64,000 nt of DNA. It comes from an uncultured Prevotellaceae bacterium. Its GTDB lineage: Bacteria > Bacteroidota > Bacteroidia > Bacteroidales > Muribaculaceae. The translations under genes were made by a program, and so were the position numbers. The stretch is taken from positions 62,001 to 126,000 of the forward strand of contig ONLH01000009.1 of the NCBI GenBank assembly GCA_900318645.1, in the 5' to 3' direction. This document shows, piece by piece, positions 30,388 to 50,210 of the stretch; within the stretch, counting starts at the first letter, position 1, and every line of letters starts with the position of its first letter. The notes beneath the pieces were generated by a model that saw only the letters and a list, made by a program, of their open reading frames with translations, had not been told where the DNA came from and made no database searches.

Positions 30388-30618
30388 ATGGAACTTAGTG
30401 GTTTTGTGACCAAGTTTGCGAATTTATTTGAAGAAACAGATCCCACCACGATTACTCCCGATACCGTTTACACCCAACTGGAGGAATGGGATTCGGTGAT
30501 GGTACTCTTATTGGTCTCGATGGTAGACGAGGAGTATGGTGTGATTGTGGATGTTGAAGAAATGAGCGAAACTGAGACGGTTAAAGACTTGTTTGAGTAC
30601 GTGAAGTCTCTTCGTTAA
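30388..30618 (+). CDS. Acyl carrier protein, copy 1 (ACP1)
   Basis: A 76-residue acidic carrier protein. LEEWDSVMVLLLV places the phosphopantetheine-accepting Ser at residue 36 in a DSV version of the usual DSL motif, at the start of helix II. The N-terminal helix FANLFEETDP is unlike housekeeping AcpP but is shared with three other ACPs in this locus. It precedes the KAS III-like gene by 61 bp. Together they form a unit repeated in tandem 1340 bp downstream; ACP1 and ACP2 are identical at 68 of 76 residues. Confidence 0.9.
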   Translation: MELSGFVTKFANLFEETDPTTITPDTVYTQLEEWDSVMVLLLVSMVDEEYGVIVDVEEMSETETVKDLFEYVKSLR

Positions 30619-30679
30619 TAATATAGTCGATTGGTTTAATAGTATGAGCCAGTAGAACCGTATCAAGTATTTGTAAAAG

Positions 30680-31681
30680 ATGAAAAAAGCGTATATCAAA
30701 CATGTAGCATATTATTTGCCAGAGAGGATAGTCACTAACGAGGATATCGTTAAACTTTTCTCAGAAAAGGCTGTTGAGAAAATCTCAGAAAATGTGGGCA
30801 TTCAACAGCGTCATCTCACCGCTCCTGGCGAAACTGCATCGGATTTGGCTGTGAAAGCTGCTAATAATCTTTTTGAAGAGAGTGGCATTGATCGGGAGTC
30901 AATAGATTTCGTTGTACTGTGCACCCAGTGTGCAGACTATTTCATGCCGTCAACAGCTTGCGTTCTTCAGAATCGCTTAGGACTGAGAAAGGACATTGGT
31001 GCCTTCGATATTGATTTGGGGTGCTCAGGATATGTCTATGGTCTTGCTATTGCAAAAGGACTCATAATGGGCGGCCTGGCCACTAATGTGCTGTTACTGA
31101 CTGCAGACAACGTCACTCGTTATCTTCACCCGCAGGATAAGGGCAACCATATGCTCTTTGGCGATGCCGCTACAGCGACTGTCATTTCCACTGAAGGAAG
31201 TGCAGAGATTATGGACTTTGTGCTTGGAACAGATGGTTCAGGAGCAAATAATCTTATTGTTAAATCTGGAGCATCAAGGATGCCGGAGCGTCAGGATGAT
31301 CTGACTTTTGACAAGAACGGCAGCCCTGTATCATCAGACCATATGTACATGAATGGTGCCCAGATCTTCGTGTTCACTCAGCGAATCGTTCCCAAGCTGG
31401 TCAAAGACGTTTTGGCTAAGAACAATCTTAATCAAGAGGACATCAATCTGTTTGTCTTTCATCAGGCCAACCGCTTTATGCTTGATTTCTTGAGAAAGAA
31501 ACTGGGCGTTCCAGAAGATCGTTTCTGTATCTATTTGGAAAACGTTGGTAACACGGCTTCTAACACCATACCTATTAGCCTTGTAGAAGCTAAAAAGGAG
31601 AACAGGGTAAACGGTAAAGTCATGTTGTGTGGCTTTGGCGTCGGTTACTCATGGGCTGGGGTCGTTCTGAATGTGGAATGA
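30680..31681 (+). CDS. KAS III-like condensing enzyme, copy 1
   Basis: A 333-residue thiolase-fold enzyme of the 3-oxoacyl-ACP synthase III group. The catalytic triad is complete: Cys115 in LGCSGYVYG, His261 in FHQANRF and Asn in NVGNTASNT. C-terminal GFGVGYSWAGVVL is typical. It would condense an acyl-CoA or acyl-ACP primer with an extender held on ACP1, or transfer an acyl group. Its position after its own ACP, with no other fatty acid genes nearby, argues against a role in membrane lipids and for a dedicated short acyl group. Confidence 0.92.
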   Translation: MKKAYIKHVAYYLPERIVTNEDIVKLFSEKAVEKISENVGIQQRHLTAPGETASDLAVKAANNLFEESGIDRESIDFVVLCTQCADYFMPSTACVLQNRLGLRKDIGAFDIDLGCSGYVYGLAIAKGLIMGGLATNVLLLTADNVTRYLHPQDKGNHMLFGDAATATVISTEGSAEIMDFVLGTDGSGANNLIVKSGASRMPERQDDLTFDKNGSPVSSDHMYMNGAQIFVFTQRIVPKLVKDVLAKNNLNQEDINLFVFHQANRFMLDFLRKKLGVPEDRFCIYLENVGNTASNTIPISLVEAKKENRVNGKVMLCGFGVGYSWAGVVLNVE

Positions 31682-31727
31682 TACCGAGCTAGTAAAAAGT
31701 GTTTTGATTAAACAAAGATTATAAAGA

Positions 31728-31958
31728 ATGGAACTTAATGATTTTATAAGCAAGTTTGCTAATTTATTCGAAGAAACAGATCCCGCCACGATTACTGCAG
31801 ACACTGTTTATTCCCAGCTTGAGGAGTGGGATTCGGTGATGGTGCTGTTATTGGTTTCTATGGTTGACGAGGAGTATGGTGTCATTGTGGATGTTGAAGA
31901 AATGAGCGAAACTGAAACGGTGAACGACTTGTTTGAGTACGTGAAGTCTCTTCGCTGA
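31728..31958 (+). CDS. Acyl carrier protein, copy 2 (ACP2)
   Basis: A 76-residue carrier protein, Ser36 in EEWDSVMVL. It differs from ACP1 at eight positions, seven of them within the first 29 residues and one (Lys to Asn) at 66; the recognition helix II and the following region are identical. It therefore probably accepts the same phosphopantetheinyl transferase and may be interchangeable with ACP1, unless the N-terminal changes set the partner. Confidence 0.9.
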   Translation: MELNDFISKFANLFEETDPATITADTVYSQLEEWDSVMVLLLVSMVDEEYGVIVDVEEMSETETVNDLFEYVKSLR

Positions 31959-33031: not shown

Positions 33032-33907
33032 ATGAACATATTGTCCTTTGACATAGAGGAATGGTTCATTAAAAAGACCTATTTTGGTGGTCGCCCGGAG
33101 CGTTATGCTACGTTTGACCATTGTCTGGAGATGATTCTTGACCTTCTAGATGAACGTCAGTTTCAAGCAACGTTCTTTGTTGTAGGCATGATGGCTAAGG
33201 AGTTCCCCGAGGTTGTGAAACGTATTCAACAGCGAGGCCATGAGATAGGATGTCATTCCAATATCCATATGTGGATTAATAAGATGAGTTGTGATGAGAT
33301 GCTGGAGGATACGAGGGTGGCAATTGATAATCTGGAACAATGTATTGGCTATAAGGTGAAAAGCTATCGTGCACCTGCATTCTCAATCGGGAATAATAAC
33401 AAGTGGGCCTTTGACATTTTAGCTCAGTGTGGCATTGAGAACGACTCGTCAGTTTTTCCTGCCTCTATGGAATTAGGTGGTTTCCAGGGATTTGGGTATC
33501 AACAACCTACTTTGATTAAGACTCAGAGTGGCTCAATTAAAGAGTATCCTATAGCCTTGGCACATCTTTGGGGCAAAGAAATTGCGTTCTCGGGTGGCGG
33601 CTATTTCCGGCTTTTCCCGTTGTGGTTCGTGAAAAGGCAAATGAGCAAAAATGATTATAACATTTGTTATTTTCACATAGACGACTTGGTCCCGTCAAAC
33701 AAAAAAATGATGTCGCGCAAAGAATTTGAGAGCTATTACAAAGAATCAGCTACTGTGATTAATCGTTGCAAACGTCATTTTAAATCCAACATTGGTAAAG
33801 GTACAGCCTTTGACAGGATGTGCAGCCTTATTCGGTCCCATAATTTCTTGTCAATTGCACAAGCTCAAGAGCTGATAGATTGGGCAAATTGTCCTGTAAA
33901 GCAGTGA
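33032..33907 (+). CDS. Polysaccharide deacetylase (NodB domain)
   Basis: A 291-residue carbohydrate esterase 4-like protein. NILSFDIEEWF gives the first metal-binding Asp (Asp7), and HEIGCHSNIHMW gives the His75-x3-His79 pair; SYRAPAFSIG is motif 3. The size and order (with a C-terminal DUF3473-like part, GGGYFRLFPLWFVKR and YFHIDDLVP) match the deacetylases common in exosortase-type and capsule loci. No signal peptide, so it acts on cytoplasmic, lipid-linked sugars. It could expose an amino group for the acyl groups made by the KAS III/ACP set. Confidence 0.9.
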   Translation: MNILSFDIEEWFIKKTYFGGRPERYATFDHCLEMILDLLDERQFQATFFVVGMMAKEFPEVVKRIQQRGHEIGCHSNIHMWINKMSCDEMLEDTRVAIDNLEQCIGYKVKSYRAPAFSIGNNNKWAFDILAQCGIENDSSVFPASMELGGFQGFGYQQPTLIKTQSGSIKEYPIALAHLWGKEIAFSGGGYFRLFPLWFVKRQMSKNDYNICYFHIDDLVPSNKKMMSRKEFESYYKESATVINRCKRHFKSNIGKGTAFDRMCSLIRSHNFLSIAQAQELIDWANCPVKQ

Positions 33908-33949: not shown

Positions 33950-34564
33950 ATGAATATATATAGGGATTATATCAAGCGGGCGTTGGGTTTTACGATATCT
34001 CTTGTTGCTCTGATGTGTTTATCTCCTCTATTGATTGTAGTAGCTGTTTGGCTGCATTTTGCAAATAGGGGAGCCGGAGTTTTCTTCCTTCAAGAACGCC
34101 CAGGCAAAGATGGTAAGATTTTCAAGATTATCAAATTCAAGACAATGACCGATGAACGAGATGATGAGGGTAACTTGCTGCCTGATGAGGACCGTCTCAC
34201 CCGTGTGGGCAAGTTTGTTCGTTCAACAAGTATAGACGAACTTCCCCAACTGGTTAATGTATTGAAGGGAGATATGGCCCTCATTGGGCCAAGGCCATTA
34301 TTGGTGAGGTATTTGCCATTATATAGTGAAGAACAGGCTCGTCGTCATGAGGTTCGTCCAGGAATCACTGGTTGGGCTCAGTGTCATGGTCGTAATACAA
34401 TAACATGGACTGAGAAATTTAAGCTTGATGTTTGGTATGTTGACCATTGCACCTTTTTCAATGATGTCAAGGTCATCTTCTCAACAATTAAGAAAGTGAT
34501 TGGCAGGGATGGAATTTCCCAAGCTGGTCAAGCAACAATGGAAATGTTTAACGGAAATAACTAA
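33950..34564 (+). CDS. Initiating phosphoglycosyl transferase (bacterial sugar transferase, PglC-like)
   Basis: A 204-residue small monotopic phosphoglycosyl transferase that would place the first sugar phosphate on undecaprenyl phosphate. One re-entrant hydrophobic helix (ALGFTISLVALMCLSPLL, ~11-35) is followed by FLQERPGKDGKIFKIIKFKTM in parts (QERPGKDG, FKIIKFKTM), the catalytic Asp-Glu pair in STSIDELPQL, then GPRPLL and RPGITGWAQ. It overlaps the next gene by one base (TAATG), so translation is probably coupled with the PglD-like acyltransferase, as in the pgl/bacillosamine pathways. Confidence 0.93.
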   Translation: MNIYRDYIKRALGFTISLVALMCLSPLLIVVAVWLHFANRGAGVFFLQERPGKDGKIFKIIKFKTMTDERDDEGNLLPDEDRLTRVGKFVRSTSIDELPQLVNVLKGDMALIGPRPLLVRYLPLYSEEQARRHEVRPGITGWAQCHGRNTITWTEKFKLDVWYVDHCTFFNDVKVIFSTIKKVIGRDGISQAGQATMEMFNGNN

Positions 34565-35844
34565 TGTATCTTTACGGAGCAAGCGGACACGCAAAAGTTA
34601 TTATTGACATACTGAGTGCAAAGGGTATCAAGGTAGATGCCCTCATTGACGATGATGTAACAATAGATGAGTTGATGTCTATTCCTGTTTTGCATCAATG
34701 GGAAGGTCAATCTCCTCTTGTGGTGAGCGTTGGTAATAATATATCACGTAAGCAAATTGTTGAAAGGCTAGGCTCAGAATGTGAGTATGTTACAGCAGTT
34801 CATCCCTCAGCAAATATTTCGTCCTATGCTAGAATAGGGGCAGGGACTGTTGTCATGCAGGGCAGCACCATTCAAAGTGGCGCACAAATAGGTAGGCATT
34901 GCATTATCAATACAAACTCTTCGATTGATCATGAGTGTATTATAGATGATTATGTTCACATTTCTCCTCAGGCAACATTGTGCGGTAATGTTCATGTAGG
35001 TATGGGCGCTTGGATCGGAGCTGCAACCGTTATTATACCAGGAGTAAGAATTGGCCGATGGAGTATAATTGGTGCAGGTAGTGTTGTTGTTAATGATATA
35101 CCGGATGGCGTTGTCGCATATGGAAACCCTTGCCAGATTAAATCACAGCGGATTGATATCGCTAGTTCGTCCTATGGTTCATCGGTTGTTAAGAGCAAAA
35201 AGATTGCTATTTATGGTGCTGGTGGATTGGGCCGAGAAGTAGCTGGAGGTATCAATCGTATCAACAAGGCTTGTAATGAGCATTGGCATTTGGTGGGTTT
35301 CTATGATGACAGTATTCCCGTTGGATCACTCGTGTCTCATTATGGTCAAGTGATTGGAAAAATGGATGATCTGAATGCCGTTGATGGTCCATTGGCCTTG
35401 GCGATTGCTGTCGGATCCCCCACTTCTCGCAAGCTTATCCATGAAAGGATTCTCAATCCGAACATTTATTTCCCCAATCTTATAGCGCCATCATTTAAAG
35501 TGCTTGATCCTGAAACATTCAAAATAGGTCAAGGAAACATTATCCAAAATAGTTGCAGTGTAACCTGTGATGTGACCATAGGAGATTTCAATGTCTTTAA
35601 TGGTTTTAACGTGATGGGTCACGATGATGTGATAGGTGATTTCAACGTGTTGATGCCTAATGTGCATCTTTCTGGATCGGTCACTATTGGTGACTGCAAC
35701 CTTCTCGGTGTCGGGAGCATTGTATTGCAGCAGATAAAGATTGGAGATAATATTACCTTGGGTGCTGGAAGTGTACTGATGACAAAGCCTAAGGATGGGT
35801 GTACTTATATCGGTGTGCCTGCCAAGAAGTTTGATTTTAAATAA
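34564..35844 (+). CDS. Fusion of two PglD/NeuD-like hexapeptide acyltransferases
   Basis: A 426-residue protein formed of two complete, different copies of the NeuD/PglD architecture. Residues 1-~200: nucleotide-binding-like YLYGASGHAKVI plus left-handed beta-helix with SSIDHECII (candidate catalytic His). Residues ~217-426: IAIYGAGGLGREVAG plus a second beta-helix with VMGHDDVIGD. The second half closely resembles the separate 213-residue protein at 42698 (both end in TYIGV-x-AKKFDF). Such enzymes N-acylate UDP-amino sugars; the two halves may use different acyl donors or acceptors. The coupled start and the DegT aminotransferase downstream support amino-sugar chemistry. Confidence 0.9.
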   Translation: MYLYGASGHAKVIIDILSAKGIKVDALIDDDVTIDELMSIPVLHQWEGQSPLVVSVGNNISRKQIVERLGSECEYVTAVHPSANISSYARIGAGTVVMQGSTIQSGAQIGRHCIINTNSSIDHECIIDDYVHISPQATLCGNVHVGMGAWIGAATVIIPGVRIGRWSIIGAGSVVVNDIPDGVVAYGNPCQIKSQRIDIASSSYGSSVVKSKKIAIYGAGGLGREVAGGINRINKACNEHWHLVGFYDDSIPVGSLVSHYGQVIGKMDDLNAVDGPLALAIAVGSPTSRKLIHERILNPNIYFPNLIAPSFKVLDPETFKIGQGNIIQNSCSVTCDVTIGDFNVFNGFNVMGHDDVIGDFNVLMPNVHLSGSVTIGDCNLLGVGSIVLQQIKIGDNITLGAGSVLMTKPKDGCTYIGVPAKKFDFK

Positions 35845-35860
35845 TAGTTCAACAAGATAA

Positions 35861-36622
35861 ATGGAAACAAACAGTTATAATCCTTTTTCCCTTGCTGGAA
35901 AAACCATATTGGTCACTGGTGCCTCGTCAGGCATTGGGAGGACTACTGCAATTAATTGTTCACGCATGGGCGCCCGTGTCGTTGTTACTGCTCGGGACCA
36001 GTCCCGACTTCAGGAGACTATCGATGAAATGGCTCCAGTAGAAGGCGGTCATTGTCAATGCCTTGCTGATTTGACGTGTCAGGAAGATGTTAAGCGCCTG
36101 TTGGGCGAGCTGCCTCCCCTGGATGGTGCCGTATTGTGCGCTGGTAATTCGGTAACGCTGCCTTTGCAGTTTGGTACCCGTGAAAAGTATGACAGCATGT
36201 TTGAGGTGAATTTCTTCTCTCCTGTAGAGTTGATGCGCCTCATGTATAAGAAAAAGATCCTCAACAAAGGTGCATCGGTGGTACTGATGGCATCTATTGG
36301 TGGAACCCACAGTTACATGCCGGGCAATGGTGTGTATGGCGCATCAAAGGCCGCATTAAACAGCGTGATGAAGTATGCTGCACGTGAATATGCCGCTCGC
36401 AAGGTGCGTGTTAACAGTGTCTGCCCTGGCATGGTGGATACCCCGTTGATCCACAGGGGTGTCATTACCGATGAGCAGCTTGCCGAGGATGCCAAGAAGT
36501 ATCCATTGGGCCGATATGGCCGTCCTGAAGATATCGCCAACGGCGTCATCTATCTGCTCAGCGATGCATCAAGTTGGCTCACAGGTCATGACTTGGTCAT
36601 TGATGGCGGCTTCTCAATCTAA
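35861..36622 (+). CDS. Short-chain dehydrogenase/reductase (FabG-like)
   Basis: A 253-residue classical SDR. TGASSGIGRT at 20-29 binds NAD(P), Tyr159-x3-Lys163 lies in YGASKAALN, and the C-terminus LTGHDLVIDGGFSI is typical of 3-oxoacyl-ACP reductases. Placed between KAS III/ACP genes, it most likely reduces a 3-oxoacyl-ACP to a 3-hydroxyacyl-ACP, but a sugar-nucleotide dehydrogenase role cannot be excluded. Confidence 0.88.
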   Translation: METNSYNPFSLAGKTILVTGASSGIGRTTAINCSRMGARVVVTARDQSRLQETIDEMAPVEGGHCQCLADLTCQEDVKRLLGELPPLDGAVLCAGNSVTLPLQFGTREKYDSMFEVNFFSPVELMRLMYKKKILNKGASVVLMASIGGTHSYMPGNGVYGASKAALNSVMKYAAREYAARKVRVNSVCPGMVDTPLIHRGVITDEQLAEDAKKYPLGRYGRPEDIANGVIYLLSDASSWLTGHDLVIDGGFSI

Positions 36623-36733: not shown

Positions 36734-36967
36734 ATGAAAATAGAAGATTTTATTGAAAACTTTGCGGCTCAGTTTGATGAGACGGACCCCGAGGAATTCG
36801 TAGCCGACACTGTATTCAAGGAACTTGATGAGTGGTCGTCGCTGACAGCATTGTCTATTATTGCAATGGTTGATGACGAGTATGATGTCATCATCAAGGG
36901 TAATGATATTCTCAAATCAGAGACCATCCAGGACCTGTTTGAGATAGTACAAAAGAAACACAAATAG
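36734..36967 (+). CDS. Acyl carrier protein with WSSL motif (ACP3)
   Basis: A 77-residue acidic protein of the same subfamily as ACP1/2 and ACP5: FIENFAAQFDETDP in helix I. The predicted phosphopantetheine Ser is residue 36 in DEWSSLTAL, where the usual Asp before it is Ser. This Asp normally helps partner recognition, so a dedicated synthase or a distinct loading enzyme is possible. It has its own promoter and is followed after 16 bp by ACP4. Confidence 0.85.
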   Translation: MKIEDFIENFAAQFDETDPEEFVADTVFKELDEWSSLTALSIIAMVDDEYDVIIKGNDILKSETIQDLFEIVQKKHK

Positions 36968-36983: not shown

Positions 36984-37214
36984 ATGGAATCACGGGTAAA
37001 AGAAATTATTGCCCGGGTCTTGAATGTGGACCTTTCCAAAATTACTGATACCCTATCTTCGGGTGATATTCCGGAATGGGATTCAGTAGGTAACCTGGCA
37101 ATTATCAGTACCATAGAGCAGGAACTTGATGTTGAGTTCCCGCTTGAGGACCTTTTTGACTTGACTTCTGTCGAGTCGATTGTCCAAGAAGTAACCAAAC
37201 TCCTACATGCTTAA
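36984..37214 (+). CDS. Acyl carrier protein (ACP4), coupled to the acyl ligase
   Basis: A 76-residue carrier protein; start at ATG 36984 rather than the TTG three bases before. Ser34 lies in PEWDSVGNL, and it begins MESRVKEIIARVLNV, like conventional ACPs and unlike ACP1-3 and 5. Its last eight bases overlap the start of the AMP-ligase gene, the classic arrangement of a ligase with the carrier it loads. Confidence 0.88.
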   Translation: MESRVKEIIARVLNVDLSKITDTLSSGDIPEWDSVGNLAIISTIEQELDVEFPLEDLFDLTSVESIVQEVTKLLHA

Positions 37215-38673
37215 AGCGCTCCACAGCACACTGCTGTGTGACATTGCCAATCATGCGACGGCCACCCCCGACAAGATAGCGCTTGTTGAGGGTGACAATC
37301 GGATTACATACGCTCAGTTGGTCTCTAGGATAGAGGCGTGTGCGTTGTTCATGCAATCACTTGGCTTGCAGGTGGGTGACCGTGTCCTGTTGTCGGCCCA
37401 GAAAGAGAAGGAATTCATCTATGTCTATTTTGCCGCCCATCTGTTAGGGGTGGTCAATGTGGTGGTGGATTCTGCGGCTCCCCGTGAACGGTTGGACTAT
37501 ATCGTGAACATCGTCAAGCCTGCTGCTTGTTTCGGCGAAACTGGCGTTGTTGCCGGATGCCATATTATCCCGTTCGCTGAAATTCCGTTGGATGATTGTT
37601 GCGAAGCTCATTTGAAATCTCCTCGACTACAGGCAACTGATGTAGCCGACGTGATGTTTACCACAGGAACTACAGGTGCGCCCAAGGGTGTCTGCCTTTC
37701 TCATGACAATATCTCAGGCTCAGCAAGCAATACCAATGGCTTTATTGGTACAAAAACTGATGATATAGAGGCTCTTGCCTTACCGTTGAGTCATTCTTTC
37801 GGCTTGGGCCGACTGCGCTGTGTCCTCTCTGTGGGCGCAACGCTTGTATTGGTCAGCAATTTCGCTAACCTCAAGTCGTTTTTCACTGTGCTTGAGAAAG
37901 AGCAAGTGACAGGATTCGGCATGGTTCCCGCTGCATGGCAATACATCAAGCGTTTTAGTGGCAGGCGTATCGCCAAGTTTGCCGATCAGTTGCGTTATAT
38001 TGAAATCGGTAGTGCTGCAATGCCTGTTGAGGATAAGCGGTTGCTTATGGAGCTCTTCCCCAAGACACGCCTGTGTATGCACTATGGCCTCACCGAGGCA
38101 TCAAGAGCGTTATTCAGTGAATTCCATGCCAATGCCGCCAACCTTGAAAGCATTGGACGTCCGGCATCGTCTTTAGTCGATGTGCAGATTTGCGGTGAGG
38201 ATGGTCAACGTTTGAACAATGATGTTGACGGAGAATTATGTGTGCGAGGCAATATGGTGTGTCGTTCCTATTATCTGGACAAGGATAATGAAGAGGCTTT
38301 TTACGGAGACTGGTTCCGAACCGGAGACTGGGGCCATCGTGACGAGAACGGTAATTTCTATCTGACAGGCCGCAAAAAGGAACTCATCAACGTTGGAGGA
38401 GAAAAAGTCAGTCCTGCAGCCATTGAGGAGGCTATCATGTCGCTTGGCGTGAAAGATTGTGCCTGTGTTGCAGTGAATGACCCCAATGGCGTGCTAGGCG
38501 AGGTCCCCAAGGCCTATCTTGTGAAGGGTGAGACCCCAATAGAGATAAACGAAGTCAAGAGTCGTCTGGCTCAACTGTTGCCACCGCATGAGATACCTGT
38601 GGAATGGGAATGGATCGAGTGTATCCCGCGCACTTCGTCGGGTAAAATCCAGCGATTGAAACTTAAGCAATAA
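37207..38673 (+). CDS. AMP-forming acyl/amino-acyl ligase
   Basis: A 488-residue ANL-superfamily enzyme that activates a carboxylic acid as its adenylate and passes it to a carrier thiol. TTGTTGAPKG at 152-161 is the P-loop-like A3 motif, HYGLTEASR the A5 motif, FRTGDWG and YLTGRKKELINVGGEK the hinge region, and TSSGKIQR with Lys480 the catalytic A10 lysine. Overlap with ACP4 indicates that ACP4 is the acceptor. The acid is unknown; the active-site pocket does not show the Asp (A4 motif) needed for an alpha-amino acid as far as I can judge by eye. Confidence 0.9.
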   Translation: MLKALHSTLLCDIANHATATPDKIALVEGDNRITYAQLVSRIEACALFMQSLGLQVGDRVLLSAQKEKEFIYVYFAAHLLGVVNVVVDSAAPRERLDYIVNIVKPAACFGETGVVAGCHIIPFAEIPLDDCCEAHLKSPRLQATDVADVMFTTGTTGAPKGVCLSHDNISGSASNTNGFIGTKTDDIEALALPLSHSFGLGRLRCVLSVGATLVLVSNFANLKSFFTVLEKEQVTGFGMVPAAWQYIKRFSGRRIAKFADQLRYIEIGSAAMPVEDKRLLMELFPKTRLCMHYGLTEASRALFSEFHANAANLESIGRPASSLVDVQICGEDGQRLNNDVDGELCVRGNMVCRSYYLDKDNEEAFYGDWFRTGDWGHRDENGNFYLTGRKKELINVGGEKVSPAAIEEAIMSLGVKDCACVAVNDPNGVLGEVPKAYLVKGETPIEINEVKSRLAQLLPPHEIPVEWEWIECIPRTSSGKIQRLKLKQ

Positions 38674-42697: not shown

Positions 42698-43339
42698 ATG
42701 AAAATAGTTATTTACGGTGCCGGTGGGTTCGGAAAGGAAGTTGCCTGCTTGATTAGGAGAATTAATGCCAATGGAGGCGACTGGCAGCTGATAGGATTCT
42801 TGGATGACACCAAACCAGCTGGCACTGCTGTTTCCCATTATGGCACGGTGCTTGGAGGCATGGATATGCTTCTCCAAGTCGATGAACCTATGGCTGTTGC
42901 CTTTGCCATCAATGAGAATAAGACTGTTCGCCGCATCCGTGAGAAGATTACCAATGAACACATCTCTTTTCCAAACCTTATTGACCCGTCAACCTTCTAC
43001 GTGGACAAGGAGACGGTGACTATAGGTGAAGGAAATATCATCCAAAACGGTTGTATGATCTCTTGTGACGTGGAAATCGGGAACTTTAATCTCATTAATG
43101 ACCACGTTGTCATCGGGCACGATAATATCATCGGAGACTTTAACGGTCTGATGCCTGGTGCTCATCTCTCAGGAGGCATTACCATCGGTAATGGTAATCT
43201 GCTGGGCGTGGCCAGCGTGGTGCTGCAAGGCCTGACCATCGGCAATGGCGTGACTTTGGGCGCAAACAGCGTCCTCATGACTCAGGCTCGTGACAACAGC
43301 ACCTATATTGGGGTGCAGGCCAAGAAATTTGATTTCTGA
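42698..43339 (+). CDS. PglD/NeuD-like hexapeptide acyltransferase
   Basis: A 213-residue acyltransferase: KIVIYGAGGFGKEVACL forms the N-terminal nucleotide-sugar-binding part, and the rest is a left-handed beta-helix with VVIGHDNIIGD (candidate catalytic His) and the C-terminal YIGVQAKKFDF. It closely resembles the second half of the fusion protein at 34564. With the preceding aminotransferase it should N-acylate the new amino group of a UDP-amino sugar; the donor could be acetyl-CoA or one of the acyl-ACPs. Confidence 0.9.
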   Translation: MKIVIYGAGGFGKEVACLIRRINANGGDWQLIGFLDDTKPAGTAVSHYGTVLGGMDMLLQVDEPMAVAFAINENKTVRRIREKITNEHISFPNLIDPSTFYVDKETVTIGEGNIIQNGCMISCDVEIGNFNLINDHVVIGHDNIIGDFNGLMPGAHLSGGITIGNGNLLGVASVVLQGLTIGNGVTLGANSVLMTQARDNSTYIGVQAKKFDF

Positions 43340-43391: not shown

Positions 43392-44375
43392 ATGGGTGTT
43401 CTTCAAGTAGCTTATCGATATTTTAAAAGGATTTATAGGGAGGTGACGAAGTTGTCTGCCATTAGTGGCTACAGCAGGTATTATCATTTGTTGGATTATG
43501 CATCTGCCTATTTTTTCCATGGCGTACACATCGACCAGTACACCGTGGGAAACCTGTGGCGTTGCAGTAATCCGGAACGAAGTAAACGTATTACCTTGAA
43601 TCGTCTGTCCCGCCTGTTTCGCAAGTATAACGATTCCAGCTATTTTCATCTGTTCAGGAATAAGGAGGAGTTTAATGTCTATTTTAAGGATTTTGTGCAT
43701 CGCGGATGGTTGTATATAAAAGACGCACAATTTGATGACTTTAAGTCATTTGTCCAAAAGTACCCATCTGTGATCATAAAGCCCAAAGACGGGATACAAG
43801 GTAAAGGCATACGTCGCTTTGTTTATTCCGGAGAGGACGACGTACAACTGCACAGTCTTTTTGATGAATGTGTAGCCGAGGATGCACTTATTGAGGAGAC
43901 CATTGTCCAACATCATGGCATGAGCTTTGGCAATGCCTCGGTGAACACAATCAGGGTGTTGACAGTGTGCCGTCCAGATGGGAAAGCCAAAGTCATGAAG
44001 GCCATCCTCCGTGCAGGCGTCGGTGACTCGATTGTTGATAACACAGCCCTTGGTGGTTACTACTATGAAGTGGATCTTCCGACGGGTGTTGTGGTTTCAA
44101 AAGGAATCAATAAAGAAGGTGACCTGTGTGTCATTCATCCGTCTAGCGGAATTGTGATGCTCGGTTTTAAGGTGCCGCATTGGGACAAGGTGATGCAAGC
44201 CAGTCTGGATGCTGCCCGCAAAATACCGCAAGTGGCCTTAGTGGGGTGGGATGTCGCGATTACCGAAGAAGGCGTAGAAATCATCGAAGGCAATGACAAT
44301 GCCGATTATTTGGCCTATGAATTTATAGGAACATCGGGCTTTTATGAGAAAATCACGTTGTTCTTGCAAGAGTAA
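43392..44375 (+). CDS. Sugar-transfer-associated ATP-grasp protein, second copy
   Basis: A 327-residue ATP-grasp protein. VIIKPKDGIQGKGIRRF is the ATP lobe, SVNTIRVLTVCRPDGK the central motif, and LVGWDVAITEEGVEIIEGN ends with the Mg-binding residues (Glu-Gly-Asn). The same family as the gene at 39785 but from a different branch, with an N-terminal extension rich in aromatic residues (SGYSRYYHLLDYASAYFF). Two such enzymes suggest two ligation steps, for instance linking an ACP-derived acid or an amino acid to an amino sugar. Confidence 0.82.
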   Translation: MGVLQVAYRYFKRIYREVTKLSAISGYSRYYHLLDYASAYFFHGVHIDQYTVGNLWRCSNPERSKRITLNRLSRLFRKYNDSSYFHLFRNKEEFNVYFKDFVHRGWLYIKDAQFDDFKSFVQKYPSVIIKPKDGIQGKGIRRFVYSGEDDVQLHSLFDECVAEDALIEETIVQHHGMSFGNASVNTIRVLTVCRPDGKAKVMKAILRAGVGDSIVDNTALGGYYYEVDLPTGVVVSKGINKEGDLCVIHPSSGIVMLGFKVPHWDKVMQASLDAARKIPQVALVGWDVAITEEGVEIIEGNDNADYLAYEFIGTSGFYEKITLFLQE

Positions 44376-44500: not shown

Positions 44501-44740
44501 ATGAACCTTGATCAATTCATAGAGAACTTCGCTGATCTGTTTGATGAAACAGATCCAGATACTATACAGGCCAACACTCAATTCAAGAATTTAGAGGAAT
44601 GGTCTTCGCTTGTCGCATTGTCGGTTATCGCAATGATTGACGAGGAATATGACGTCGAATTCCGTGGCGACGATATCCGTGGCAGCAGCACTGTCAAGGA
44701 CCTTTATGACATCGTCGAGACTAGAGTGGAAGAAGAGTGA
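44501..44740 (+). CDS. Acyl carrier protein with WSSL motif (ACP5)
   Basis: A 79-residue carrier protein; ATG 44501 is preferred to the upstream TTG at 44474 by alignment with ACP3 (both begin with a Met and 'DQFIENFA' or 'EDFIENFA'). Ser36 in LEEWSSLVAL has Ser instead of Asp before it, as in ACP3. Helix I FADLFDETDP is the locus-specific signature. It is 106 bp upstream of the fourth KAS III-like gene and has its own probable promoter. Confidence 0.87.
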   Translation: MNLDQFIENFADLFDETDPDTIQANTQFKNLEEWSSLVALSVIAMIDEEYDVEFRGDDIRGSSTVKDLYDIVETRVEEE

Positions 44741-44846
44741 TGGTGACCATCTGCTAAACGACTTGCTGCCCAGAGTATTCTGAAGGCAGGGTGTTTTTGC
44801 ATTTTTTCTTGTTTTCTAATCCTTACATCATTAATAGCCTGTTACT

Positions 44847-45901: not shown

Positions 45902-46309
45902 ATGGAGTCACTTCTCGCTTTTCATCATATCGGCATCGCTTGCCACGATATCTCAAAAAGCTCACAGTTCTTTACACTGATGGGCTATGAGGCAAGCCCT
46001 GTTACCGATGACCCCATCCAACATGTGCGTATCTGTTTCCTGGAAAAGGAAGGTGCGCCACGTTTGGAATTGTTAGAGCCCCTTGATGAGCAGAGTCCTG
46101 TGGCACGCACGCTTGCAACGTCTGGCGTGACTCCCTATCACATCTGTTATGAAGTGACTGACATCACTGCAGCCATTGCAGCGTTGCGCAGTCAGCGTTT
46201 CCTGCTGGTGAGCGGCCCCGTTCCCGCGTGTGCGATGGGTAACAAGCAGGTAGCCTTCATGTTCCAAAAGAATACAGGTCTCATAGAGTTGGTTGAAGTT
46301 CCCAGGTGA
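45902..46309 (+). CDS. VOC-fold protein (methylmalonyl-CoA epimerase-like)
   Basis: A 135-residue protein of the vicinal-oxygen-chelate superfamily, start at ATG 45902. Candidate metal ligands are His9 (FHHIGIAC), Glu56 (RLELLEP), His80 (PYHICYE) and Glu129 (GLIELVE), the pattern of methylmalonyl-CoA epimerase and related isomerases. In this place it may epimerise or isomerise a 2-substituted acyl-ACP intermediate. Its stop overlaps the start of the next gene by one base (TGATG). Confidence 0.85.
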   Translation: MESLLAFHHIGIACHDISKSSQFFTLMGYEASPVTDDPIQHVRICFLEKEGAPRLELLEPLDEQSPVARTLATSGVTPYHICYEVTDITAAIAALRSQRFLLVSGPVPACAMGNKQVAFMFQKNTGLIELVEVPR

Positions 46310-47343
46310 TGAGCGAATTGCTGCTGACATACATCGTTCCTGTTTACAACACTGAGCGTTACTTGTCAAGGTGCCTCTCATCAATTATCAGTCAAGGACT
46401 TGGTGATGGTGAGTATGAGGTGCTGGTAGTGGATGATGGCTCTACCGACGGCAGTGTCGCTGCAGCCGAAGCCTTTGCGTCCACCCATGCTCAGGTGCAT
46501 ATCATCCGTCAGCAGAACCAAGGCGTGAGTGCCGCTCGCAACCGTGCGCTAGACATGGCACGTGGCCACTATATCCAATTTGTTGACAGTGATGACTACC
46601 TAGAGGCCGGGGTCATGGCTCCCCTGTTGTATCGAGCCCTTGATGAACGGATTGACGTGCTCCTGTTCAATTACAAGAGCGTGGATGTTGAGGGAACTCC
46701 AATCCCCTCGTCAAAGCGTAATGATCAATATCCATCGACTGCGGTGATGAGCGGCGTGGACTATTTGTCCGGACACTCGATGACGCCTTACATCTGGCGT
46801 TTTCTCATTTCCCGCAGTTTCTTTGAAAAGGGGTGTGCCTATTTAGGGGATGAAAAGGGATGGCGTTTTGACACGTCTCTCATCGTCTGTGAAGATGGGT
46901 CGTTGATTGCACGTTTCCTCCTTGCCGCCGAACGTGTGGCTCACGACGGTACAGCAGCCTATTACTACGTGAACCGCAGCGATAGTGCTATGCATAGTTC
47001 TGATATAAACCATATCCGTCGTCGTCTTTTCAGCCAAGTCAATGCTGCTGCAGCAATTAATGATGCCATTCAGCGCCATGAACTGCATTATGGTAAATCA
47101 GCACCCGGGAGTGTTGCTGGCTTGAGGAATGTTTACCTGTTTTTTGCCATGACCAAGGCGTTGACGAGCGGCTGTGTTGATGAGGTGTTGCAGCGCATTC
47201 GTCAAGCAGGGCTGTTTCCTTTCCCCTGTGTGGGACCTGAGGCCAACTACTATGGCAAGAAATGGAAAGTCATCCACACTCTGATGATGCGTCCGCGCCT
47301 ATGGGCATTCTTGAGCAAAGTATATCGCTTGATAAAGAAATAG
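46309..47343 (+). CDS. Family 2 glycosyltransferase
   Basis: A 344-residue GT2 enzyme, start ATG 46309 (overlapping the VOC stop). LTYIVPVYNTERYLSRCL, VVDDGSTDGSVA and the metal site FVDSDDY are present; the ~100 C-terminal residues are basic and partly hydrophobic. It is embedded among acyl-group genes rather than with the other glycosyltransferases, so it may transfer the acylated sugar. Confidence 0.9.
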   Translation: MSELLLTYIVPVYNTERYLSRCLSSIISQGLGDGEYEVLVVDDGSTDGSVAAAEAFASTHAQVHIIRQQNQGVSAARNRALDMARGHYIQFVDSDDYLEAGVMAPLLYRALDERIDVLLFNYKSVDVEGTPIPSSKRNDQYPSTAVMSGVDYLSGHSMTPYIWRFLISRSFFEKGCAYLGDEKGWRFDTSLIVCEDGSLIARFLLAAERVAHDGTAAYYYVNRSDSAMHSSDINHIRRRLFSQVNAAAAINDAIQRHELHYGKSAPGSVAGLRNVYLFFAMTKALTSGCVDEVLQRIRQAGLFPFPCVGPEANYYGKKWKVIHTLMMRPRLWAFLSKVYRLIKK

Positions 47344-47349: not shown

Positions 47350-48942
47350 ATGAAGACATTTGTCTTTCGTAATCAGACGGTTGAACCTTTTCTGGGCAGT
47401 GACGGCATGACCTATTCAGGTTATGACGACATCAGTCATGTACCTGAAGACGTGGATCGTTATATCTGGTTCTATCAGGTTCCAGTCAATGCCGACAGCA
47501 TTCAGTTGTCCGAAGAAGTTGCATCCTTTATTGACAAGCTGGACCTGGTGCTGAACCGTGTTGATGTCACCAAGCCGTTCATCATCTTTTCTCTAGAGAA
47601 CCTGTTCCAGTTGAGGCTCACGGGAAACGAGACTGCTGTAGCCGAGTCGGTTACTGCTTTCAACCGTCACGCCATGCAGCTGTCGATTGAACGAAACAAT
47701 GTCAAGTGGGTGGACTTCGGCGAATTCACGTCCCGCTATGACGCCTCGACGCTCATGAACTGGAAGTACTATCTCATGTCGCAGATGATGCTGAATCCCA
47801 AACTGGCGGATGATTTCCAGCGGTGGTTCCAGCGTCTTGATGAGGAGATGGCGCTCAAACGCAAGAAATGTCTGGTTCTGGACTTGGACAACACCTTGTG
47901 GGGTGGGGTGCTCGGCGAGGACGGCATCGACGGCATCAAGTTGGGCGGAGACTATCCAGGTAAGGCCTATTCTTACTGGCAGCAGTCACTGTTGCAGTTG
48001 TCCCGCAACGGTGTGATTTTGACGGTGTGCAGCAAGAATAACGAGGCTGATGTGGTCGAAGCGTGGGAGAAAAATCCGCACATGGTATTGAAGCGAGAGC
48101 ACTTCAGTGCCCTGCGCATCAACTGGCGTGACAAGGCGACCAACCTGCGCGAATTGGCTGATGAACTGAACATTGGTCTTGACAGTATGGTCTTTCTTGA
48201 TGACAACCCGACAGAGCGTGAACTGGTCAAGCAGATGTTGCCCGAGGTCACTGTCCCTGATTTCCCCGACAAGCCCTATCAATTGATGGTCTTCTTTAAG
48301 CAACTGGTAGAGCGTTATTTCCGCATCTATCGAGTGACAGAAGAGGATCGTGCCAAAACGCAGCAGTACCATGCCAACGCTATGCGCAAGGCCGAGATGG
48401 GACGATTTGCCGATATGGAGAGTTATCTCTACAGCCTTGACTTGCAGTTGGAAATCATCCCCGCCGATGAGCATAACCTGCCGCGTATCGCACAGATGAC
48501 CCAGAAGACAAACCAGTTCAACCTCACCACCCAACGCTATTCCGAAGCCGATGTCAAGCAGCGTCTTGACAACGGATGGCACATTTATGGTATGAGCGTG
48601 AGTGACCGCTTCGGCGACAATGGCATTACAGGTACCATATTTCTGGAGCCGGTCGATGAAACTACAGTCAATATTGACACGTTGTTGCTGAGTTGCCGCA
48701 TTCTGGGTAAGGGTATCGAGGACGCTTTTGTTAAGACGGTACTCAATGTGCTGCGCTTGGATGGTTATCGCCATGTGACAGCCGCATACTTGCCTACAGC
48801 AAAGAATGGTCAGACGGCCGATTTCTATGATCGCATGGGAATGGCCTGCTCTGCTACCGAAGCTGACGGCACCAAGCGTTATGATTTGGCTTTGGACCAT
48901 GTCTATGAGATACAGAACTATTATAATATCAAAGTATTATGA
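47350..48942 (+). CDS. FkbH-like HAD-IIIC enzyme (glyceryl-ACP or related acyl-ACP synthase)
   Basis: A 530-residue protein. Residues ~1-165 are an N-terminal domain without a clear match; ~172-310 form the HAD-IIIC phosphatase domain with LVLDLDNTLWGGVLGEDG (Asp178 and Asp180) and VFLDDNPTERE; the C-terminal ~200 residues have a GNAT-like character (SDRFGDNGITGTIFLEP, LLLSCRILGKGIEDAFV). FkbH enzymes are known to dephosphorylate 1,3-bisphosphoglycerate and load the glyceryl group on an ACP. Its last four bases overlap the ACP6 start (ATGA), strong evidence for this partnership. The product would be a glyceryl-S-ACP for the polysaccharide. Confidence 0.9.
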   Translation: MKTFVFRNQTVEPFLGSDGMTYSGYDDISHVPEDVDRYIWFYQVPVNADSIQLSEEVASFIDKLDLVLNRVDVTKPFIIFSLENLFQLRLTGNETAVAESVTAFNRHAMQLSIERNNVKWVDFGEFTSRYDASTLMNWKYYLMSQMMLNPKLADDFQRWFQRLDEEMALKRKKCLVLDLDNTLWGGVLGEDGIDGIKLGGDYPGKAYSYWQQSLLQLSRNGVILTVCSKNNEADVVEAWEKNPHMVLKREHFSALRINWRDKATNLRELADELNIGLDSMVFLDDNPTERELVKQMLPEVTVPDFPDKPYQLMVFFKQLVERYFRIYRVTEEDRAKTQQYHANAMRKAEMGRFADMESYLYSLDLQLEIIPADEHNLPRIAQMTQKTNQFNLTTQRYSEADVKQRLDNGWHIYGMSVSDRFGDNGITGTIFLEPVDETTVNIDTLLLSCRILGKGIEDAFVKTVLNVLRLDGYRHVTAAYLPTAKNGQTADFYDRMGMACSATEADGTKRYDLALDHVYEIQNYYNIKVL

Positions 48943-49163
48943 ATCTGGAAGAGAAAGTATTAGAGATCATGCGTGAGGTCTTTGATCTTGAAGATATCAC
49001 TATTGACGTATCCCAAAAGAACTGCGCCAAATGGGACTCGTTGCATCACTTGACGTTATCGTCGGAATTGGAAGACGCGTTTGACCTCGACCTGGAACCC
49101 GAGGAAATCGCCGAGATGACCGATTTTTCACGTGTCATTGCAATGCTCAAGTCCAAATTGTAA
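48939..49163 (+). CDS. Acyl carrier protein, FkbH partner (ACP6)
   Basis: A 74-residue carrier protein with a conventional motif KWDSLHHL, Ser34. It begins MNLEEKVLEIMREVF, closer to FkbJ-type ACPs than to ACP1-3 and 5. Translationally coupled to the FkbH-like gene and 27 bp ahead of the acyltransferase-3 gene, so it probably carries the glyceryl unit. Confidence 0.9.
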   Translation: MNLEEKVLEIMREVFDLEDITIDVSQKNCAKWDSLHHLTLSSELEDAFDLDLEPEEIAEMTDFSRVIAMLKSKL

Positions 49164-49190
49164 TCATCCCCGTGGTCAATTGGATGGCAA

Positions 49191-50210
49191 GTGGAGAAGC
49201 AGCGCATTGCTTATATCGACTTCATGAAGTGCCTGTGCATCATGCTCATCGTGATGTACCACATTGACCATGAGTTTTTCAACTATCTGGCTCCTCATCT
49301 GAACGATGCCTTGCAGGCTTTCCGTCTGCCGATGTATTATTTCATTTCGGGCATCTTCTTCAAGCTTTATAGCGGTTATGCCGATTTCACGCGGCGCAAG
49401 GTGAACAATATCCTTGTGCCGTTTGTTTTTTTCGTGGTGTTTGCATTTGCCGTACGTCTGTTGGAGTATGGCTTCCGCCTGATTGTGGGCGCTGAGCCTA
49501 TTGAGGTCAGACTCTCGCAGCTTGTAGAGCCCTTTTATCTGCGATACTGGGAAAACACCACGCCGTTGTGGTTCCTGCTGAGCCTGTTTTGGGTTAATGT
49601 CATCTTCTATGCCATGCAACGGTGGATCAAGCCGTTGTGGGGCATCTTGCTGGCGACAGTAGCGTTGTCGGTCGTCGGCTATGAGCTAGGGGGCAACAAG
49701 ATTGAGCTGCCGCTCATGCTGGATACCTCGTTGGTGGCGTTGCCCTATTTTGTGCTGGGGTGGGGCATTAAACGCATTGGAGCAATAGCTCCGACGAAGT
49801 GGGACCGTTGGGGTATCCTGGCCTTGATCGCCGTGGCGATGCCCATCTACTGGTTGAGCGACTTCATGAACCTGCATTTTCAGGTTTTGCCCTCCTACTG
49901 GAAGTTGTATGTTTTGCCTTTTGTGGCCATATTGGCGTTGTTCTGGGCGTGCAAGCCGCTGCCTCACATTCCGTTGTTCTGCTATTACGGGCGTTACTCG
50001 CTCATCATTTTAGGAACACATCCCTTGATACTGCAGCCCGTCCGCTTCCTGCTCCTGCGTCAGGGCATGGAGAGCGGCGTGGAACTGACGTTGTTTGTTT
50101 TTGTCGTGACCATGCTGGTCGAGTTGCCGCTGATTTGGCTACTCAAGACCTGGGCGCCCAGATTTACAGCCCAGGAACCATTCTTTAAACCCGGTTGGAA
50201 ATTACGTTAA
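49191..50210 (+). CDS. Acyltransferase family 3 membrane protein
   Basis: A 339-residue polytopic membrane protein with about ten helices. IAYIDFMKCLCIMLIVMYHIDHEFFN at the N-terminus contains the conserved His of the family (core VMYHIDH). R-rich and FYFISGIFF elements follow. Start GTG at 49191; the nearby ATG at 49184 is out of frame. These enzymes O-acylate sugars of surface polysaccharides. It directly follows ACP6, so transfer of a glyceryl or other acyl group from the locus is possible, although acetyl is the commonest group for the family. Confidence 0.88.
   Translation: MEKQRIAYIDFMKCLCIMLIVMYHIDHEFFNYLAPHLNDALQAFRLPMYYFISGIFFKLYSGYADFTRRKVNNILVPFVFFVVFAFAVRLLEYGFRLIVGAEPIEVRLSQLVEPFYLRYWENTTPLWFLLSLFWVNVIFYAMQRWIKPLWGILLATVALSVVGYELGGNKIELPLMLDTSLVALPYFVLGWGIKRIGAIAPTKWDRWGILALIAVAMPIYWLSDFMNLHFQVLPSYWKLYVLPFVAILALFWACKPLPHIPLFCYYGRYSLIILGTHPLILQPVRFLLLRQGMESGVELTLFVFVVTMLVELPLIWLLKTWAPRFTAQEPFFKPGWKLR

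What the first reader, a model, noticed from the sequence alone, without database searches (positions are those of the whole stretch)
30388..50210. Dispersed ACP/KAS III acyl-building system inside an exopolysaccharide locus
In 20 kb there are six free-standing ACPs, four KAS III-like enzymes with complete Cys-His-Asn sites, an ACP-coupled AMP ligase, an SDR, an FkbH-ACP pair, an MBL-fold hydrolase and a VOC protein, mixed with a phosphoglycosyl transferase, a DegT aminotransferase, PglD-like acyltransferases and ATP-grasp enzymes. Each KAS III lies downstream of one or more ACPs. Small ACP/KAS III/SDR sets that make a 3-hydroxybutyryl group for an amino sugar are known from flagellin-glycan (viosamine) islands. 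Four KAS III enzymes with distinct ACP classes and an FkbH route go well beyond that and suggest a multi-step, discrete-enzyme, polyketide-like pathway for a complex acyl decoration on a polysaccharide.
Basis: partly seen in the sequence, partly recalled or inferred. Interest (0 to 1): 0.88.

Follow-up and report, generated by a model that had tools for sequence, protein, structure and literature searches.

The report
Modular polyketide-style acylation of a polysaccharide
An uncultured bacterium appears to build unusual small acid groups on carrier proteins, in the way polyketide antibiotics are built, and to attach them to amino sugars of its surface polysaccharide, using starter modules that recur as units in related and in some distant bacteria.

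Summary
In detail: six ACPs, four KAS III enzymes with intact Cys-His-Asn, ligase, SDR, FkbH, MBL, VOC, PGT, DegT and PglD genes, in one co-directional run. Comparison refines the interpretation: not one long pathway but separable modules: (1) GNAT-ACP-KAS-ACP-KAS-NodB; (2) ACP-ACP-ligase-KAS-ATP-grasp, absent as a block from 3 of 16 genus loci; (3) ACP-KAS-VOC-FkbH-ACP. Module 3 recurs, often with PGT, PglD, SDR and a PglE-type aminotransferase, in other Bacteroidota. In a tree of 111 KAS IIIs the 41 FkbH-linked ones form one clade (SH-aLRT 99; one remote outlier dropped) and 18 ligase-linked ones another (100): the KAS type follows the starter-loading enzyme. Best reading: glyceryl-ACP (FkbH) or an activated acid (ligase) primes a KAS III, the SDR reduces, and a PglD amidates the 4-amino initiating sugar. 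Closest known is the Flavobacterium psychrophilum O-polysaccharide, where two KAS, one ACP, a reductase and a PglD are predicted to make 3,5-dihydroxyhexanoyl-Qui2NAc4N. I found no paper with the FkbH or ligase starter modules in such loci. No product was measured.

The parts
29364..30344 (+). GNAT-type protein, module 1 (candidate acyl-ACP N-acyltransferase)
   Evidence: No Pfam hit itself; relatives L220, L222 and L227 (26-28% id) hit Acetyltransf_9, only L227 above the cut-off; low-confidence model (pLDDT 54) matches GNATs in PDB; of the 8 mapped loci with a relative (window included) 8 have an ACP and 7 a NodB within 6 genes, while 10 other loci have NodB without it
30388..30618 (+). ACP1
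   Evidence: PF00550 27.0 bits over cut-off 20.8; 89% identical to ACP2
30680..31681 (+). KS1, KAS III
   Evidence: PF08541/PF08545; NF006829 284 bits over 249, below fabH TIGR00747; Cys-His-Asn
31728..31958 (+). ACP2
   Evidence: PF00550 26.9 bits
32020..33021 (+). KS2, KAS III, tandem paralogue of KS1
   Evidence: Pfam; 69% identical to KS1, 86% to the G222 copy
33032..33907 (+). NodB-type polysaccharide deacetylase with DUF3473
   Evidence: PF01522, PF11959
33950..34564 (+). PGT, monotopic phosphoglycosyl transferase (initiating enzyme)
   Evidence: PF02397 204.6 bits; present in 16 of 16 full genus loci
34564..35844 (+). Double PglD fusion (domains PglDa and PglDb)
   Evidence: two PglD_N stretches, PF17836; the PglDa half is kept in 11 of 16 genus loci, in 5 PglDb is fused to another N-terminal part
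35861..36622 (+). SDR, candidate 3-ketoacyl-ACP reductase
   Evidence: PF13561 183.8 bits; FabG-type NCBIfam hits below cut-off; an SDR (35-54% id) near FkbH/KAS in 20 of 20 divergent cassettes
36734..36967 (+). ACP3
   Evidence: PF00550 23.4 bits
36984..37214 (+). ACP4
   Evidence: PF00550 36.1 bits; overlaps LIG by 8 bases
37207..38673 (+). LIG, AMP-forming acyl ligase
   Evidence: PF00501 220 bits; best PDB relatives gramicidin synthetase A domain and FadD13
38700..39764 (+). KS3, KAS III of the ligase-linked clade
   Evidence: Pfam; 18 of 18 KAS III linked to a ligase of 40% identity or more in one clade, SH-aLRT 100
39788..40885 (+). AGa, sugar-transfer-associated ATP-grasp
   Evidence: PF14397 103 bits; model pLDDT 61 matches RimK, Ddl, PsnB
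40924..41496 (+). MBL-fold hydrolase (candidate editing thioesterase)
   Evidence: PF00753 59 bits; weak glyoxalase II-like PDB hits
41526..42668 (+). LegC/PglE-type aminotransferase
   Evidence: PF01041; TIGR04181 358 bits, below cut-off 420; best PDB chains 1o61 and 4ztc, 300 and 296 bits (that these are PglE is recalled)
42698..43339 (+). PglDs, stand-alone PglD/VioB-type N-acyltransferase
   Evidence: PF17836; best PDB VioB 7txp; 58% identical to PglDb
43392..44375 (+). AGb, second ATP-grasp_ST
   Evidence: PF14397 171 bits; not in the other 16 genus loci; G017 has a 30% hit
44501..44740 (+). ACP5
   Evidence: PF00550 23.7 bits
44847..45896 (+). KS4, KAS III of the FkbH-linked clade
   Evidence: Pfam; clade of 41 FkbH-linked KAS III, SH-aLRT 99
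45905..46309 (+). VOC, methylmalonyl-CoA-epimerase-like
   Evidence: PF13669 78.4 bits; TIGR03081 70.6 bits, below cut-off 115
46309..47343 (+). GT2 glycosyltransferase inside module 3
   Evidence: PF00535 110 bits
47350..48942 (+). FkbH-type protein, candidate glyceryl-ACP synthase
   Evidence: TIGR01686 292 bits over 147; D178, D180 and C449 invariant in 9 aligned copies
48939..49163 (+). ACP6, partner of FkbH
   Evidence: overlaps FkbH by 4 bases; an ACP6-labelled ORF lies by FkbH in 41 of 41 distinct KAS-bearing loci
49191..50210 (+). Acyl_transf_3 membrane acyltransferase
   Evidence: PF01757 99 bits; found in 15 of 16 genus loci, not in G180

Best explanation
The locus makes a Wzy-type exopolysaccharide whose amino sugars carry short acyl groups built on dedicated ACPs by free-standing KAS III enzymes. 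Module 3: FkbH makes glyceryl-ACP6 from 1,3-bisphosphoglycerate; VOC may epimerise it; KS4 takes the glyceryl group as primer and condenses it with a malonyl group on ACP5; the SDR reduces the ketone (predicted product 3,4,5-trihydroxypentanoyl-ACP). A PglD-type enzyme then amidates the 4-amino group of the UDP-sugar made by the LegC/PglE-type aminotransferase (4,6-dehydratase elsewhere in the genome), and the PGT loads this sugar on the lipid carrier as first sugar of the repeat. Module 2 does the same with an acid activated by the ligase on ACP4 and KS3. Module 1 (two ACP-KAS III pairs, GNAT, NodB) deacetylates another N-acetyl sugar and re-acylates it. Shown: gene content, order, co-inheritance and KAS clade structure. 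Inferred: substrates, products, order of steps.
For: Order kept from PGT to ACP6 in 16 same-genus loci. FkbH with a KAS III in 41 distinct loci; of the 20 divergent ones 20 have an ACP6-labelled ACP and an SDR, 13 VOC, 9 PGT (61-76% id) and 10 LegC (nine at 57-76%, one at 28%); 12 have a PglDb/PglDs-type PglD at 46-55%, 2 a full-length one at 28-31%. KAS III clade follows the starter enzyme: 41 FkbH-linked and 18 ligase-linked, 2 changes, the least possible, shuffled mean 47. In the 393 genomes of the order, searched by FkbH and again by KS4, the FkbH genes at 47% or more (own, G645, G418) lie in the same genomes as KS4 at 52% or more. FkbH and KAS distances correlate (Mantel r 0.89, 0 of 5000, 41 loci; 21 loci r 0.46, 3 of 5000). 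PDB matches of LegC and PglDs; a PglF-like protein at own C20 whose relatives stand next to or one gene from LegC in four loci. F. psychrophilum precedent.
Against: No product is known. One SDR serves up to four KAS III. LegC is below its NCBIfam cut-off. Of the 20 divergent cassettes 4 have only a hexapeptide-repeat match in place of PglD and 2 none. Close FkbH can stand without KAS (L219, 49% identical). Genomes without the ligase block keep the PglD fusion, so no PglD can be assigned to a module. FkbH as a source of KAS primers has weak precedent: in the oocydin paper the FkbH loading module is suggested to be non-functional (PMC4552970), and in tetronate clusters FkbH and a FabH-like enzyme close a ring instead (PMC7489565).
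Confidence: 0.53

Rival explanations
1. FkbH-ACP6 only supplies a glyceryl group, transferred as such to the polysaccharide (by Acyl_transf_3 or a PglD), and KS4 separately makes 3-hydroxybutyryl from acetyl-CoA.
For: FkbH without a KS4-type KAS is common: 61 of 80 named loci. Acyl_transf_3 follows ACP6 in the window and in 15 of 16 genus loci. GNAT-linked FkbH-ACP pairs exist (L220, L222, L227).
Against: Several cassettes hold FkbH-ACP6 beside KS4 with no Acyl_transf_3 hit in the mapped stretch (G140, G056, G192, G109, L223); the FkbH-linked KAS III are one clade.
Confidence: 0.23
2. Tetronate-type chemistry: KS4 joins glyceryl-ACP6 to a beta-ketoacyl-ACP made by another KAS III and closes a tetronate ring, giving a free or sugar-linked tetronate.
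For: [quoted passage not shown]
Against: No counterpart of that operon's acyltransferase/dehydratase pair among the Pfam hits of the 26 genes at 28196-50210 (the membrane Acyl_transf_3 is another family). An SDR that would remove the needed ketone is in 20 of 20 divergent cassettes. Some mapped stretches hold only one KAS III (G140, G056, L223), though G140 has another elsewhere. Ring closure with chain release leaves no thioester for PglD.
Confidence: 0.12
3. The KAS III proteins are not condensing enzymes but acyltransferases of the CerJ type, moving ACP-bound acyl groups to sugar hydroxyls.
For: KAS III relatives with acyltransfer roles are known (recalled).
Against: The Asn of the condensing triad is kept in all 12 aligned KAS III and in 41 of 41 FkbH-linked ones; CerJ-type enzymes have Asp there (recalled). 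PglD and GNAT acyltransferases are already present.
Confidence: 0.06
4. Ordinary 3-hydroxybutyryl supply, duplicated by chance; the extra genes are passengers.
For: Simple ACP-KAS-SDR sets with PglD are widespread. KS1/KS2 and ACP1/ACP2 look like a tandem duplication.
Against: Modules are kept at 51-89% identity over the genus and the FkbH-KAS pair recurs well outside it; passengers should decay.
Confidence: 0.06

Closest known systems
Flavobacterium psychrophilum O-polysaccharide R1-group genes wfpB-wfpG with pglE/pglF (Cisar, Bush, Wiens 2019, PMC6519341)
   Same: PglC-type PGT for the initiating sugar, PglE, PglD homologue, dedicated ACP, 3-ketoacyl-ACP synthases and reductase; the paper predicts a type II fatty-acid-like route to an N-4 acyl group of Qui2NAc4N, with R-group genes that differ between strains
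   Different: There two KAS and one ACP; FkbH does not occur in the text; product 3,5-dihydroxyhexanoyl. Here four KAS III, six ACPs, FkbH and ligase starter modules, VOC, ATP-grasp, MBL and a GNAT/NodB module. Its gene sequences were not compared here
Tetronate glycerate-utilisation operon (for example mad7, mad8, mad16; PMC7489565)
   Same: FkbH-like, stand-alone ACP and FabH-like KAS III together
   Different: No PKS and no counterpart of mad17/mad18 here; linked to PGT/PglD/aminotransferase and to an SDR
N-(3-hydroxybutyryl) amino sugars, for example bacillosamine in Pseudoalteromonas polysaccharides (PMC3210612 passages), and viosamine flagellin glycans with ACP/KAS III/SDR genes (recalled; the search listed one unrelated paper)
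   Same: Short 3-hydroxyacyl amide on a 4-amino or 2,4-diamino sugar; for viosamine ACP, KAS III, SDR and acyltransferase genes
   Different: One simple acyl group; no starter-loading enzymes known to me
Neisseria PglB2, glyceramide on a 2,4-diamino sugar with an ATP-grasp domain (recalled; listing only)
   Same: Glyceryl-type amide on an initiating diamino sugar; an ATP-grasp is involved
   Different: There the ATP-grasp is fused to the PGT; here separate, and glyceryl would come from FkbH-ACP

Membership tests
F. psychrophilum-type N-acyl R-group pathway | PglC-like PGT and PglD homologue in the same cluster | tested here: met
F. psychrophilum-type N-acyl R-group pathway | dedicated ACP, 3-ketoacyl-ACP synthase and ketoreductase | tested here: met
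   that the SDR is a ketoreductase is inferred (FabG models below cut-off)
F. psychrophilum-type N-acyl R-group pathway | PglE and PglF for UDP-Qui2NAc4N | tested here: inconclusive
   LegC best PDB match 1o61/4ztc but below TIGR04181 cut-off; PglF-like 667 aa protein lies on another contig
F. psychrophilum-type N-acyl R-group pathway | hydroxyacyl amide on N-4 of the initiating sugar | not testable with these tools
   no glycan structure is at hand
Tetronate glycerate-utilisation operon | FkbH-like + ACP + FabH-like | tested here: met
Tetronate glycerate-utilisation operon | Agg4-type acyltransferase and Agg5-type dehydratase | tested here: not met
   Pfam scan of the 26 genes at 28196-50210 shows no counterpart; reference sequences were not compared directly
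Housekeeping FabH | passes fabH model TIGR00747 | tested here: not met
   KS1 258, KS3 148, KS4 212 bits against 292 (KS2 not given to that call)
KAS III condensing enzymes | Cys-His-Asn | tested here: met
   12 of 12; 41 of 41 distinct FkbH-linked
CerJ-type KAS III acyltransferases | Asp in place of Asn (recalled) | tested here: not met
FkbH glyceryl-ACP synthases | HAD-IIIC/FkbH domain with DxD motif and conserved Cys | tested here: met
   TIGR01686; D178, D180, C449 invariant in 9 of 9; role of the Cys recalled; substrate not tested
Methylmalonyl-CoA epimerase | passes TIGR03081 | tested here: not met
   70.6 against 115 bits
Neisseria PglB2 | PGT fused to ATP-grasp | tested here: not met
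   PGT is a 204 aa single-domain protein; ATP-grasps are separate

The most novel reading that the evidence does not exclude
Surface polysaccharide loci of Bacteroidota use a combinatorial mini-polyketide system: interchangeable starter cassettes (FkbH-ACP with its own KAS III clade, ligase-ACP with another) feed a reductase and PglD acyltransferases, so that a polyhydroxy, sugar-like acyl chain derived from glycolytic 1,3-bisphosphoglycerate is amidated to the initiating sugar; swapping cassettes changes the antigen.
Probability: 0.4. Interest if true: 0.78.

Novelty: new variant of a known kind. Interest (0 to 1): 0.62.

Why it matters
If right, polysaccharide diversity in Bacteroidota includes polyketide-style acyl groups whose identity can be read from the starter gene beside each KAS III. 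It turns a set of genes easily annotated as fatty acid synthesis into a testable acyl code, gives a mechanism for serotype-like variation, and points to a natural FkbH-primed short-chain ketide route that could be reconstituted in vitro. The nine-gene set PGT-PglD-ACP-KAS-VOC-FkbH-ACP-SDR-LegC in the named strain Chryseobacterium jejuense CC143 (L223) makes the question testable without the uncultured source organism.

Tried and rejected
Single long pathway through all four KAS III: judged unlikely because blocks come and go separately. Glyceryl ester by Acyl_transf_3 alone: weakened because several cassettes have no hit for it. CerJ-type acyltransfer: judged unlikely on the conserved Asn. Housekeeping FabH: rejected by model scores. 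PglD-to-module assignment: tried by typing the PglD halves; failed, since PglDb and PglDs are one subfamily and their losses (G217, G187) do not track the module losses. Starter-pocket residues: 27 columns separate the FkbH-linked clade from 5 unlinked sister KAS; no structural test was done. Structure models were weak: GNAT pLDDT 54, ATP-grasp 61; their fold matches are taken as class assignments only.

Papers: the searches gave, in the rows listed (for example 20 of 60, 15 of 43), no paper that I could see linking FkbH or a ligase starter to polysaccharide N-acyl groups. The library lacks most subscription journals. Of the papers I opened PMC6519341 (abstract, passages, discussion), PMC3210612, PMC7489565 and PMC4552970 (passages); of all others I saw the listing and the start of the abstract.

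Corrections made on the way: the first Mantel run paired L213 with the wrong one of two FkbH ORFs and is superseded. The first tree (68 rows) held one very distant KAS-like protein (G040) and took weaker ligases (23-28% identical) as partners; there the ligase label needed 2 changes. The final tree (111 rows) counts ligases of 40% identity or more and drops two remote rows, G040 and L250; L250 stood beside an FkbH, and with it the FkbH label needs two changes. G146 has such a ligase without a KAS III within four genes. For G550 the best KAS match lay just outside the stretch that I fetched.
Full report
What is there. The window is a stretch of contig C35 of a 3.6 Mb genome. One co-directional run of genes spans 19740-54375 with gaps of at most 142 bases. 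It begins with sugar-nucleotide and glycosyltransferase genes and an EpsG-type polymerase, continues with the acyl genes at 29364-50210, and ends with an Exo_endo_phos-family protein, a protein without Pfam hit and a GHL10 protein. A Wzc-like protein (AAA_31 over the cut-off, GNVR and Wzz below), a UDP-glucose dehydrogenase and an inositol-phosphate synthase lie on the other strand upstream. G+C is 39-44% at 18-36 kb, 48-55% upstream of that and 41-53% downstream.

Related loci. A KS4 search of 297 genomes of the family finds 21 of 40 same-genus genomes (own included) with a match at E of 1.1e-126 or better. Maps show FkbH beside it in each of these and in three genomes of other genera of the family (G140, G056, G192). 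Of the 20 other genus genomes, 16 have the order PGT, PglD, SDR, [ACP3, ACP4, LIG, KS3, AGa], MBL, LegC, PglDs, ACP5, KS4, VOC, GT2, FkbH, ACP6, AT3; G276 is cut by its contig; G135, G227 and G109 have other arrangements. Among the 16, four have extra genes between PGT and PglD (G237, G222, G217, G264), and in five PglDb is fused to something other than PglDa. The bracketed block is present in 13 of 16 (G193 without ACP4 in my map) and missing as a unit in G283, G187 and G247, which are one clade in the KAS tree. Not found in my maps: MBL in G212, PglDs in G217 and G187, AT3 in G180. The ACP-KAS-NodB module occurs in 2 of 16 (G237, G222) and, with ACP and KAS duplicated, in the window. AGb has no counterpart in the 16 (G017 has a 30% hit). 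The upstream glycosyltransferase part varies.

Organism. 

Wider distribution. FkbH was searched in 393 genomes of the order: 28 have a match at E of 1e-30 or better, 3 of them at 47% identity or more (own, G645, G418). I mapped the neighbourhoods of 26 of the other 27 (not G378): G645 and G418 have KAS III beside FkbH; the maps of the others, some cut short, show none. KS4 searched in 393 genomes of the order gives 73 with a match at E of 1e-60 or better; only own, G418 and G645 exceed 50% identity. I mapped 20 of the 73: ACP within two genes of the best KAS in 18 of 20, SDR in 14 of 20, a PglD-labelled gene (some hexapeptide-only) within eight genes in 8 of 20. The 19 include Chryseobacterium jejuense CC143 (L223), Bergeyella (L225), a Verrucomicrobia MAG (L224, without PGT or LegC in the stretch), an unclassified MAG (L221) and a contig labelled as an archaeon (L214), the last probably misbinned.

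The KAS III clade follows the starter enzyme. In a tree of 111 distinct KAS III proteins from the mapped loci, the 41 FkbH-linked ones are one side of one branch (SH-aLRT 99) and the 18 linked to a ligase of at least 40% identity another (100); the labels need 2 changes, the least possible, against 47 in shuffles. Two remote rows were dropped; with L250 the FkbH label needs 2 changes. Shuffles do not allow for near copies: 21 of the 41 are from the core genus type; the rest span several families and, if the MAG labels hold, two phyla. FkbH and KAS distances correlate (r 0.89 over 41 loci; r 0.46, 3 of 5000 permutations, over 21 loci with a single core member). I read this as KAS primer specificity matched to the starter loaded by FkbH or by the ligase. 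This is inference; no activity was measured.

VOC goes with FkbH rather than with KAS: it lies within six genes of FkbH in 8 of the 61 named FkbH loci without a KS4-type KAS (L219, L229, L233, L237, L240, L242, L243, L268) and in 13 of 20 divergent KAS-bearing cassettes. An epimerase-like role on the glyceryl thioester is a guess from its nearest family, whose cut-off it does not reach.

Where the acyl group goes. Of the 20 divergent cassettes, 12 have a PglDb/PglDs-type PglD (46-55% identical) near FkbH, 2 a full-length one at 28-31% (G109, G645), 4 only a hexapeptide-repeat match (L213, L215, L216, L218) and 2 none (G418, L221). LegC is near in 10 (one at 28%) and PGT in 9; many stretches are cut by contig ends. 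LegC is closest in the PDB to 1o61 and 4ztc, which I recall as C. jejuni PglE; PglDs is closest to VioB and a pilin glycosylation protein. A PglF-like dehydratase is at own C20, and relatives 41-44% identical stand next to or one gene from LegC in G228, G131, G298 and L212. So the simplest target is the 4-amino group of the initiating diamino sugar. Against certainty: LegC misses its NCBIfam cut-off, and L213, L215 and L216 may use another acyltransferase.

Module 1. The 29364 gene has no Pfam hit at the default threshold, but relatives beside FkbH-ACP in L220, L222 and L227 hit a GNAT family (only L227 over the cut-off), and its weak model matches GNATs. Of the 8 mapped loci with a relative, 8 have an ACP and 7 a NodB within six genes; NodB occurs without it in 10 others. 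I infer deacetylation followed by re-acylation from ACP.

Known relatives. In F. psychrophilum the initiating sugar Qui2NAc4N carries 3,5-dihydroxyhexanoyl, and the authors predict its synthesis by wfpC and wfpE (3-ketoacyl-ACP synthases), wfpD (ACP), wfpF (reductase) and transfer by wfpG (PglD) (PMC6519341: abstract, passages and discussion read). That makes the general idea known. What I did not find in print (searches, listings only for most papers) is the FkbH or ligase starter module in such loci. The tetronate operon shares FkbH, ACP and FabH-like (PMC7489565, passages) but not the rest. The oocydin paper (PMC4552970, passages) speaks against treating FkbH loading as an established starter route.

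Judgement. A conserved, modular acyl-building system tied to the initiating amino sugar is well supported by comparison (about 0.7, my estimate). The glyceryl-primed product is the best guess (about 0.5). The ligase's acid, the ATP-grasp role (ligase-type fold from a weak model) and the MBL role remain open.

Noticed in passing
L214 (JAAZKM010000078, whole 11.9 kb contig): The cassette PGT-PglD-ACP-SDR-KAS-FkbH-ACP-LegC stands on a contig labelled as a Methanofastidiosia archaeon; probably a misbinned Bacteroidota contig.
   Followed up: no
L092 (G146, same genus), about 8-18 kb: ACP4-ligase stands beside two transketolase-like halves (272 and 332 aa) and an 826 aa protein that looks like an acyl-protein synthetase/reductase: possibly a third starter route. 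Functions read by eye.
   Followed up: partly
L197, L198, L199, L200, L201, L202, L203: A second context of ACP-KAS III-SDR-GT2 with a protein of about 224-246 aa and no PglD or PGT hit recurs in the order (one gene lies between SDR and GT2 in L200 and the KAS order varies); probably another pathway.
   Followed up: no
L132, L133, L135, L151: Distant FkbH genes (35-37% identical) of the order stand with a VOC protein and, in L132, L135 and L151, an ACP-labelled ORF, without KAS III; some have proteins of about 300 and 480 aa nearby that may be O-acyltransferase parts.
   Followed up: no
window 8176-10467 and 61871-62452: Secreted-looking proteins carry repeated D-x-N-x-D-G-type motifs near the C-terminus that look like dockerin-type repeats (by eye).
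   Followed up: no
window 50221-54375: Exo_endo_phos-family, unassigned and GHL10 genes follow the acyl operon in all 16 full genus loci at 66-91% identity.
   Followed up: partly
window 36623-36733, 44376-44500, 44741-44846: The largest gaps within the acyl genes (106-125 bases) lie before ACP3, ACP5 and KS4; possible internal promoters, not scanned.
   Followed up: no
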